From NCBI GenBank assembly GCA_964017185.1, contig OZ024878.1:18293851-18357850 (forward strand): 64,000 bases of DNA, given 5' to 3'. The position numbers and the translations under genes are program-made. Position 1 is the first letter of the stretch; the number at the start of each line of letters is the position of its first letter. Below, one piece after another: positions 15,437-16,287 of the stretch. The notes below the pieces were generated by a model, which was not told the DNA's origin, did not search any database, and was given only the letters and a program-made list of their open reading frames with translations. The stretch is from Rugalucina vietnamica. Lineage: Eukaryota > Mollusca > Bivalvia > Lucinida > Lucinidae.

Positions 15437-16287
15437 TAAAAGTTAAAGTAGGCAATGATCGGGAAATGGGGCAATAAGAAAGAAATTCACACTCCAAAAA
15501 CCGAGGCGGAAAAAAGAAGACAAACCACAAGTCGAGCGAGCAGCAATTCTTCCAACAGGCGGCCATCCAGTCATCCAAGCCAAACCAAAAACACGAACAC
15601 GCACATTAGGCGCCAACAGCACAAAAATTCAACAAGAAGACATAAAATAACAAGAGCCACCACAGAAGCACCGCCCCGGAACGATCAGTAATACAAAACC
15701 ACTAGCGGGCCCTAAAAAGCTATACAGGCCTAACCTCACCATCCGCAGTGACTGACAACACCCAGTCAGCCACCCGGCCACCCAATAAACCACAAGCATT
15801 CATTCAGAGCATTGAAGTCCGTAACAAGACCGCAGAACCCAGAAAACCCAACAAGCCGCGAAACGCACACACCACAAGAAGCACGGCATGAAAAACGCCA
15901 CCATCATTAAACGGAAAATTCACTATATCAGAACCAAAGCCACTATCACAAACCTCAGAAGAAACAAATCCACTCGCAATAGAAAGGTGCAAATCCAAAA
16001 AGTGGGCCTCGACACTCGCGGCGTTGGCTTTGTTCAACTGCGGTACAGGTGGATAAAATCTGACCGACCACACCTCCAAAACAAGGGCTGCCAAATCCAA
16101 AAAAGTTCATGGAGGTACATTGAACCCGGAAGTTAAACCAAAAGCCCCCCACCCCCACCCCCACGACAAATGGTCAAGATAATCCACGAAATCCCGCGCA
16201 GCAGCACAAAAACAAATCAGCCACGAGAGGGGCACAACCCGCACCCATCGTAATTCCAACAATCCGTCCGCTCAAACCGGTCCCAAA
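15437..16287 (-). mobile_element. PLE reverse-transcriptase/UTR copy with A-to-G skew (copy 6)
   Basis: Read on the minus strand this copy has the PLE motif-B region (KFGTG...GITMGAGCAPLVADLFL), the LNKANAASVEAHFLDLHLS block, DIVNFPF and the complete 3' UTR. It matches the copy at 55.18-55.68 kb but is far more GC-rich. By eye the differences are overwhelmingly sense-strand A to G, with T largely unchanged: GGGTACAAATTG reads GGGTGCGGGTTG, and GATTTATTTTTATACTGC reads GATTTGTTTTTGTGCTGC. Many A's that follow a G are unchanged. The skew includes the UTR and stops at the element edges. Part of the C-terminal coding region is missing. The plus-strand frames here are antisense. Confidence 0.8.

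What the first reader, a model, noticed from the sequence alone, without database searches (positions are those of the whole stretch)
15437..16287. PLE copy with strand-specific A-to-G hypermutation, consistent with ADAR editing of the retroelement RNA
Seen: against the 55.2-55.7 kb copy and the UTR consensus, the sense strand of this copy shows A to G at a large share of sites while T's are kept (GATTTATTTTTATACTGC became GATTTGTTTTTGTGCTGC; GGGTACAAATTG became GGGTGCGGGTTG). The same skew runs through the 3' UTR (T to C on the plus strand: GTTAGTTA became GTCAGCCA) and stops at the element edges; the adjacent MITE-B is normal. Many A's preceded by G are spared (CTGATTT, CGATGGG, GGATT), with some exceptions such as GAAGG to GGAGG. 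Known: ADAR deaminates A in dsRNA and disfavours a 5' G; APOBEC-type editing would give G to A instead. Inference: the RNA was hyperedited before being copied into DNA. Inverted PLE pairs elsewhere in the window show how dsRNA could arise.
Basis: partly seen in the sequence, partly recalled or inferred. Interest (0 to 1): 0.87.

Follow-up and report, generated by a model that had tools for sequence, protein, structure and literature searches.

The report
Retroelement copies carrying fixed RNA editing
Some copies of a jumping gene in an animal genome carry dense, one-directional A-to-G changes that look like the marks of an RNA-editing enzyme, copied back into DNA and inherited.

Summary
The copy at 15438-16299 (ORF on the minus strand) has A>G at 111 of 209 A sites but T>C at 20 of 328 T sites on its sense strand; adjoining repeats lack such a skew.

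Twelve further copies elsewhere in the genome carry the signature (13 of 27 compared; they were found with an edited query, so this is no frequency). In the cleanest three, 88-93% of changes are sense A>G. Edited sites are nearly independent between copies, lie in on/off tracts, ignore codon position, and favour 5' T/A over C/G and 3' G. The genome encodes an ADAR2-type deaminase with the serine linked to 3'-G preference. Among 192 public relatives, 13 proteins in four lineages show A>G-type changes, none the mirror image.

Best explanation: ADAR hyperedited double-stranded sense RNA of a Penelope-like retroelement, and edited RNAs were reverse-transcribed and inserted. Enzyme and order of steps are inferred from DNA alone. 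Editing is rare: G at two chosen sites in 3 places, against 4,065 matches of the A/G-tolerant pattern. The T>C mirror census did not complete.

The parts
15438..15746 (-). 3' UTR part of the hyperedited PLE copy (sense on the minus strand)
   Evidence: excess changes T>C on plus = A>G on sense
15794..16299 (-). RT ORF part of the hyperedited copy; last 6 bases overlap the MITE homology
   Evidence: against L018, 69 A>G of 136 A versus 8 T>C of 182 T
16294..16431 (.). neighbouring MITE copy, without the skew (edge control)
14955..15189 (.). left-flank repeat, without the skew (edge control)
54820..55786 (+). unedited ORF part of the same PLE family, one of 13 reference copies
   Evidence: A>G 2 of 286
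55787..56387 (-). 5'-truncated PLE inserted in antisense inside the element 54820-57266; candidate source of dsRNA hairpins
   Evidence: element positions 1-968, antisense 1852-1250, then 967-1852
56386..57266 (+). remainder of the interrupted unedited element, with 3' UTR
58109..58176 (+). SECIS element in the 3' part of an unedited copy of the family
   Evidence: Rfam RF00031 39 bits; second one at 56624-56691

Best explanation
The element is a Penelope-like retroelement whose sense transcripts are at times paired with antisense PLE RNA or with an inverted neighbour. A host ADAR (an ADAR2-type enzyme is encoded) deaminates about half of the adenosines within the paired stretches. The edited RNA is then used as template for reverse transcription and insertion, so the inosines become G in a new, dead copy. 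Shown: strand-specific A>G in 13 distinct copies, near-independent sites, on/off tracts, ADAR-like neighbour preferences, unskewed repeats beside the window copy, and ADAR-family genes in the genome. Inferred: dsRNA as the substrate, ADAR as the enzyme, and editing before insertion.
For:: 13 of 27 distinct copies edited (L002 A>G 230, T>C 5, G>A 6, C>T 4, other 17; L011 125, 1, 1, 2, 5); 13 unedited copies have 1-7 A>G each; L016 is neither; odds ratios 5'T 1.57, 5'A 1.40, 5'C 0.63, 5'G 0.57; 3'G 1.45, 3'A 0.82; 3'G above 1 in 12 of 13 copies; site sharing only slightly above chance (78 pairs, mean z 1.45); 11 of 13 copies have unedited runs longer than chance (p 0.004 or less), e.g. 40/59 next to 1/104 in L004; no codon-position effect in the 12 edited loci other than the window copy (0.249, 0.245, 0.233; P 0.63); L007 carries a nested UTR insert with 0 of 54 edited, with edited stretches on both sides (19/43 and 9/19); four A_deamin loci, one ADAR2-like with HAE and ESGEG; PMC5625713 section 6 (read) ties that serine to 3'-G preference; same mark in public relatives, e.g. 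P0072 versus P0013, 42 of 42 differences A>G-type.
Against: No RNA data. PMC5625713 (section 6) reports enrichment of A, not G, downstream in its group of amphibians and invertebrates; here G is favoured and A disfavoured. The 5' preference is moderate, and pooled z-scores are inflated because the same sites recur across copies; L010 and L015 show almost no 5' preference, and L010 and L023 have 5'G odds ratios above 1. The window copy is old (117 non-A>G changes) and its own tract test is not significant (p 0.095); L023 is weak (23 A>G; p 0.58). The loci were found with an edited query, so the lack of sense T>C copies among them is biased; the mirror search did not complete. Genome totals of the 35-place pattern do not lean to A>G: A=R 4065, T=Y 4151. 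References were chosen by smallest non-A>G difference, which leans towards A>G, with a fixed reference, does not have that lean and finds the same 13. Of the four A_deamin loci only C12 was read. Right flank 16433-17300: T>C 44 against A>G 15.
Confidence: 0.88

Rival explanations
1. Error-prone reverse transcription: the PLE RT misincorporates C opposite template A in bursts, giving sense A>G without any deaminase.
For: Would give the same strand and the same change confined to the element; tracts could be bursts of low fidelity.
Against: In young copies the changes are mostly A>G, with few transversions or other transitions (L011: 9 others against 125 A>G). The 5' U>A>C>G and 3' G pattern fits ADAR and would be a coincidence here. 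In the 20 sampled regions none of 23 hits is edited.
Confidence: 0.06
2. A GC-rich subfamily: the copies descend from one or a few diverged masters.
For: L005 and L006 are identical and L009 looks like the same copy, all on C1. One site in the 35-base pattern is G also in the otherwise unedited L022, so a few A/G sites are old variants.
Against: Site sharing over 78 pairs of 13 copies is only slightly above chance (mean z 1.45; the strongest pair shares 47 against 34.6 expected). L003 and L008 differ at 7 non-A/G sites but share edits near chance level. Changes are directional, without a matching G>A, T>C or C>T excess.
Confidence: 0.02
3. DNA-level strand-biased mutation at the site (regional mutator, or ADAR or another deaminase acting on DNA of an RNA:DNA hybrid).
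For: ADARs can act on RNA:DNA hybrids in model substrates (PMC12925331 passages). The stretch 16433-17300 has T>C 44 against A>G 15 on the plus strand, though C>T is 37.
Against: The adjoining MITE and left repeat are unskewed; in L007 a nested insert is unedited with edited stretches on both sides. Deamination of the first cDNA strand would read as sense T>C, the opposite of what is seen.
Confidence: 0.03
4. Mosaic by template switching: the RT jumped between edited and unedited RNAs, which explains the tracts without partial duplexes. This refines the main explanation and does not compete with it.
For: Tracts of mostly 35-80% edited A alternate with tracts of 0-8%.
Against: Some tracts are very short (6/6 in 20 bases in L004; 8/9 in 22 bases in L023), which would need many switches.
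Confidence: 0.25

Closest known systems
ADAR A-to-G hypermutation of retroviruses (Rous-associated virus, avian leukosis virus; reviewed in PMC12925331, passages read)
   Same: A-to-G in up to about half of adenosines of a reverse-transcribing element
   Different: There: retroviruses. Here: a Penelope-like retrotransposon, 13 near-independent inherited copies, with the mark in four protein lineages
APOBEC DNA editing of endogenous retroelements (PMC2873906, passages read)
   Same: Clustered, strand-specific deaminase mark in genomic retroelement copies
   Different: That is G-to-A from cytidine deamination of cDNA; here A-to-G, and no G-to-A excess
Metazoan RNA hyper-editing of repeat transcripts (PMC5625713, passages and section 6 read); molluscan ADAR editing of herpesvirus RNAs (PMC6651903, abstract)
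   Same: Clustered A-to-I; in the former, G depleted upstream and repeats as dsRNA source
   Different: Those are changes in RNA; here they are in the DNA
Naiad-type Penelope-like elements, N-terminal GIY-YIG and selenocysteine (Craig et al. 2021, recalled; not held)
   Same: Relatives have GIY-YIG before RT; this element has a SECIS and an in-frame TGA
   Different: No GIY-YIG was seen in this element itself; its 5' end was not read

Membership tests
ADAR hyperediting | Clustered A-to-G on one strand without matching T-to-C, G-to-A or C-to-T | tested here: met
ADAR hyperediting | 5' neighbour U/A favoured, G disfavoured | tested here: met
   odds ratios T 1.57, A 1.40, C 0.63, G 0.57; weak or reversed in L010, L015, L023
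ADAR hyperediting | 3' neighbour preference as expected for the host enzyme | tested here: met
   3'G odds ratio 1.45; host ADAR2-type keeps the serine (rule from PMC5625713 section 6). Against the general downstream-A trend of invertebrates in that paper
ADAR hyperediting | ADAR gene in the genome | tested here: met
   PF02137 at four loci; 0 of 14 control genomes (which genomes is not stated). One locus read, ADAR2-like
ADAR hyperediting | Double-stranded RNA substrate | tested here: inconclusive
   inverted pair present in the window; no RNA evidence
ADAR hyperediting | Inosine in the RNA | not testable with these tools
   no RNA data at hand
Penelope-like element (Naiad type, recalled) | Reverse transcriptase related to PLE RTs | tested here: inconclusive
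   No RVT_1 hit in the element itself at E 1; RVT_1 in 1 of 22 aligned relatives at 0.005; no convincing PDB relative; relatives reached through P0089 carry RVT_1; structure model unusable, pLDDT 41
Penelope-like element (Naiad type, recalled) | GIY-YIG endonuclease N-terminal to RT | tested here: inconclusive
Penelope-like element (Naiad type, recalled) | Selenocysteine: in-frame TGA plus SECIS | tested here: met
   TGA in 3 of 3 loci in which the 12 bases before it match exactly; SECIS_1 above gathering score in 4 of 7 loci searched (L003, L007, L018, L022; not L002, L011, L012) and twice in the window
APOBEC-type DNA editing | Sense G-to-A excess | tested here: not met
   G>A 1-12 against A>G 23-230 in the 13 edited copies
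Diversity-generating retroelement mutagenesis (recalled) | A to any base | tested here: not met
   L003/L008: 146 of 153 differences are A/G

The most novel reading that the evidence does not exclude
ADAR editing acts as a recurrent, heritable restriction of selenoprotein-type Penelope retroelements in several animal lineages. Double-stranded PLE RNA remains competent for insertion, so each edited copy is a DNA fossil whose tracts record where the source RNA was double-stranded and which ADAR, with its neighbour preferences, acted at that time.
Probability: 0.4. Interest if true: 0.88.

Novelty: new variant of a known kind. Interest (0 to 1): 0.82.

Why it matters
Marks of ADAR are normally read from RNA and vanish with it. 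Here they sit in DNA and can be dated, so ADAR action on retroelement dsRNA in the germ line, its sequence preference and the extent of the duplexes could be read from genomes alone. It would also mean that hyperedited, presumably once double-stranded RNA can serve as a template for retroelement insertion, and that ADAR can mark retrotransposons as APOBEC does, leaving the reverse signature. The screen used here (sense A>G excess per copy, or A>G-type amino-acid changes) can be run on any assembly.

Tried and rejected
GC-rich subfamily: tested by site sharing and rejected. APOBEC and diversity-generating mutagenesis: rejected on the substitution spectrum. Regional DNA mutation: rejected on the adjoining repeats and a nested insert. 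A general screen of 264 kb (window plus 20 regions of 10 kb), with the other loci, found the mark among sample and window only in pairs with the window copy; the sample is too small to claim it is PLE-specific. A tandem array in L044 gave a false alarm of strand-asymmetric composition with many transversions. One PLE hit, 44016-44194, was flagged T>C (10 against 3) but is a 66% identical fragment with 56 non-A>G changes in all. In one search P0224 had an A>G-type excess of 17 (58 against 41) at 474 differences and was not counted. A LINE control returned only 40 proteins, the nearest other than its own at 53% identity, which I judged too diverged to test; no signature count was made. Structure prediction was unusable, so no fold search was run. 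Hammerhead ribozymes: none reported in the window or in the 7 loci searched at Rfam thresholds. The A=R and T=Y totals (4065 and 4151) do not lean to A>G; single ordinary changes dominate them.

Full report
WHAT IS THERE. The stretch 15438-16299 is a 5'-truncated copy of a Penelope-like retroelement on the minus strand: an RT-ORF part (16299-15794) and a 3' UTR part (15746-15438), with about 600 bases of the element missing between them.

THE CHANGE. Against 13 unedited copies the window copy has A>G at 111 of 209 A, T>C at 20 of 328 T, G>A 11, C>T 17 and 69 others; A>G versus T>C gives P = 1e-35. The 117 other changes show that the copy is old. The MITE on one side and the repeat on the other have no such skew; further right, 16433-17300, T>C is 44 against A>G 15 over 22 overlapping hits, but C>T is 37.

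IT IS NOT ALONE. The own-genome search gave 45 matches; 28 loci were read (8, 20). L006 is identical to L005 and L009 was taken as the same; L001 is the window copy. With the 55 kb copy this leaves 27 distinct copies: 13 edited, 13 unedited (1-7 A>G each) and L016, which is older and not edited. The unedited set was picked, whose leave-one-out majority of all copies gives the same picture. L002 has 230 A>G against 5 T>C, 6 G>A, 4 C>T and 17 others; L028 170, 8, 6, 5, 30; L003 147, 8, 4, 3, 22; L011 125, 1, 1, 2, 5. A>G is 93% of changes in L011 and 88% in L002 and L005. The weakest are L023 (23 A>G, 8 of them in one 22-base tract) and L015 (33). These loci were found with an edited query, so 13 of 27 is no frequency. 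In 20 regions of 10 kb at round positions on C1, C4 and C5 there were 23 hits of 80 bases or more, none edited. A 35-base pattern with A written as R has 4065 matches in the genome; of the 50 whose letters were shown, 46 were unchanged, 3 had one G and 1 had six. Requiring G at two chosen sites leaves 3 places: L028, L021 and the window copy, all already in hand. In the loci read, 8 distinct copies carry two or more G in that pattern, about 2 per thousand as a lower bound. The T=Y version has 4151 matches, so single changes show no lean; the mirror of the two-site search did not complete.

INDEPENDENT EVENTS. Over 78 pairs of edited copies, shared sites exceed chance only slightly once local density is allowed for (mean z 1.45; the strongest pair, L003/L004, shares 47 against 34.6 expected), as a shared sequence preference would give. 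L003 and L008 differ at 7 non-A/G sites of 1578, yet share 31 edits against 27.4 expected. In the 12 edited loci other than the window copy, edits are spread evenly over codon positions (355/1427, 402/1639, 257/1104; P = 0.63), so they do not look filtered by coding selection.

TRACTS. A two-state segmentation with preset rates finds edited stretches (mostly 35-80% of A; extremes 24% and 100%) alternating with stretches of 0-8%; 11 of 13 copies have unedited runs longer than chance allows (p of 0.004 or less; exceptions L023, p 0.58, and the window copy, p 0.095). L010 is edited near its 5' end only (58/97, then 6/312); L007 starts unedited (3/216); L003, L004 and L005 have nearly unedited 3' UTRs. 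In L007 a nested UTR copy inserted at element position about 967 has 0 of 54 A edited; edited stretches lie on both sides (19/43 and 9/19), though the 21 A directly before the insert are unedited too. The mark thus belongs to the incoming RNA and not to the locus. Template switching between edited and unedited RNAs could also make tracts.

NEIGHBOURS AND ENZYME. Stratified by copy and 120-base bin, the odds ratios are 5'T 1.57, 5'A 1.40, 5'C 0.63, 5'G 0.57, 3'G 1.45, 3'A 0.82. The z values are optimistic because sites recur across copies. PMC5625713 (section 6) says that G is depleted upstream in both its species groups, that the group of amphibians and invertebrates favours A downstream, and that downstream G depends on ADAR2 serine 486. 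The result here (G favoured, A disfavoured) goes against that invertebrate trend. But the host's ADAR2-like protein on C12 (138 residues against human ADAR2 1zy7, E 7.5e-57) aligns serine to serine in ESGEG and has the HAE motif (its role recalled), which fits. A_deamin matches fall at four loci (C12, C9, C10, C13); the Pfam family also covers ADAT1 (recalled), so not all need be ADARs. PMC6651903 reports four ADAR homologs in lophotrochozoans (abstract).

BEYOND THIS GENOME. Of the 120 relatives listed (of 1596 found), 13 show 38-97 amino-acid changes explicable by A>G in the codons of L022, with no other transition above 15; the other 107 have an excess of at most 4. Joined (192 PLE proteins) and compared with the protein of smallest non-A>G difference, the same 13 stand out: P0119 versus P0083, 84 of 89 differences A>G-type and none G>A-type; P0072 versus P0013, 42 of 42. 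None of 192 shows a T>C-type or C>T-type excess of 15 or more. That choice of reference leans towards A>G, with a fixed reference, does not. By other differences the 13 form four groups: the window's family (P0100, P0072), a second (P0036, P0119, P0113, P0097, P0104, P0077, P0073), a third (P0111, P0094, P0093) and P0087. The database gives no organism for them, and whether the other groups lie in other species or partly in this genome was not settled (P0083 sent, unanswered). Gene-calling may favour edited copies, since A>G removes stop codons.

WHAT THE ELEMENT IS. L022 holds an open frame of 640 codons preceded by an in-frame TGA; the TGA is present in 3 of 3 loci in which the 12 bases before it match exactly. 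A SECIS is called in 4 of 7 loci searched and twice in the window. Pfam gives no RT hit for it even at E 1. Relatives joined in steps (54% to P0089; 39-40% from there) carry GIY-YIG ahead of RVT_1 in 3 of 7 scanned, the order that I recall for Naiad-type PLEs. Relatives in records labelled Thiodiazotropha, symbionts of lucinid clams as I recall, hint at a bivalve host; the host was not identified.

LITERATURE. In the held library (CC0, CC BY and CC BY-SA papers) the searches listed no paper whose title or shown abstract reports A-to-G hyperedited transposon copies in genomes; most listed papers were not opened. Known neighbours are ADAR hypermutation of retroviruses (PMC12925331, passages) and G-to-A editing of retroelements (PMC2873906, passages). 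Papers outside that library were not searched.

VERDICT. ADAR editing of retroelement RNA followed by insertion is by far the best account; the enzyme and the order of steps are inferred from DNA alone.

Noticed in passing
window 58109-58176 (+), 56624-56691 (+); L022 439-441 and 2339-2406: The PLE looks like a selenoprotein gene: in-frame TGA plus SECIS.
   Followed up: partly
window 54820-57266: PLE interrupted by an antisense, 5'-truncated copy of its own 3' part, giving an inverted pair of about 600 bases.
   Followed up: partly
L005, L006, L009 (C1: 64.14, 64.17, 64.21 Mb): What looks like one edited PLE copy lies in three places 35-37 kb apart; L005 and L006 are identical over the element part compared, L009 was not compared in full.
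   Followed up: partly
L044 1220-6684 (C4: 70.0 Mb): Long tandem array with strand-asymmetric composition.
   Followed up: no
window 11420-11937 and 42563-42965: Long simple repeats coding for (LLTY)n and (IY)n in open frames.
   Followed up: no
P0040, P0045, P0161: Animal-type PLE proteins sit in records labelled Thiodiazotropha and Campylobacter, probably contamination.
   Followed up: no
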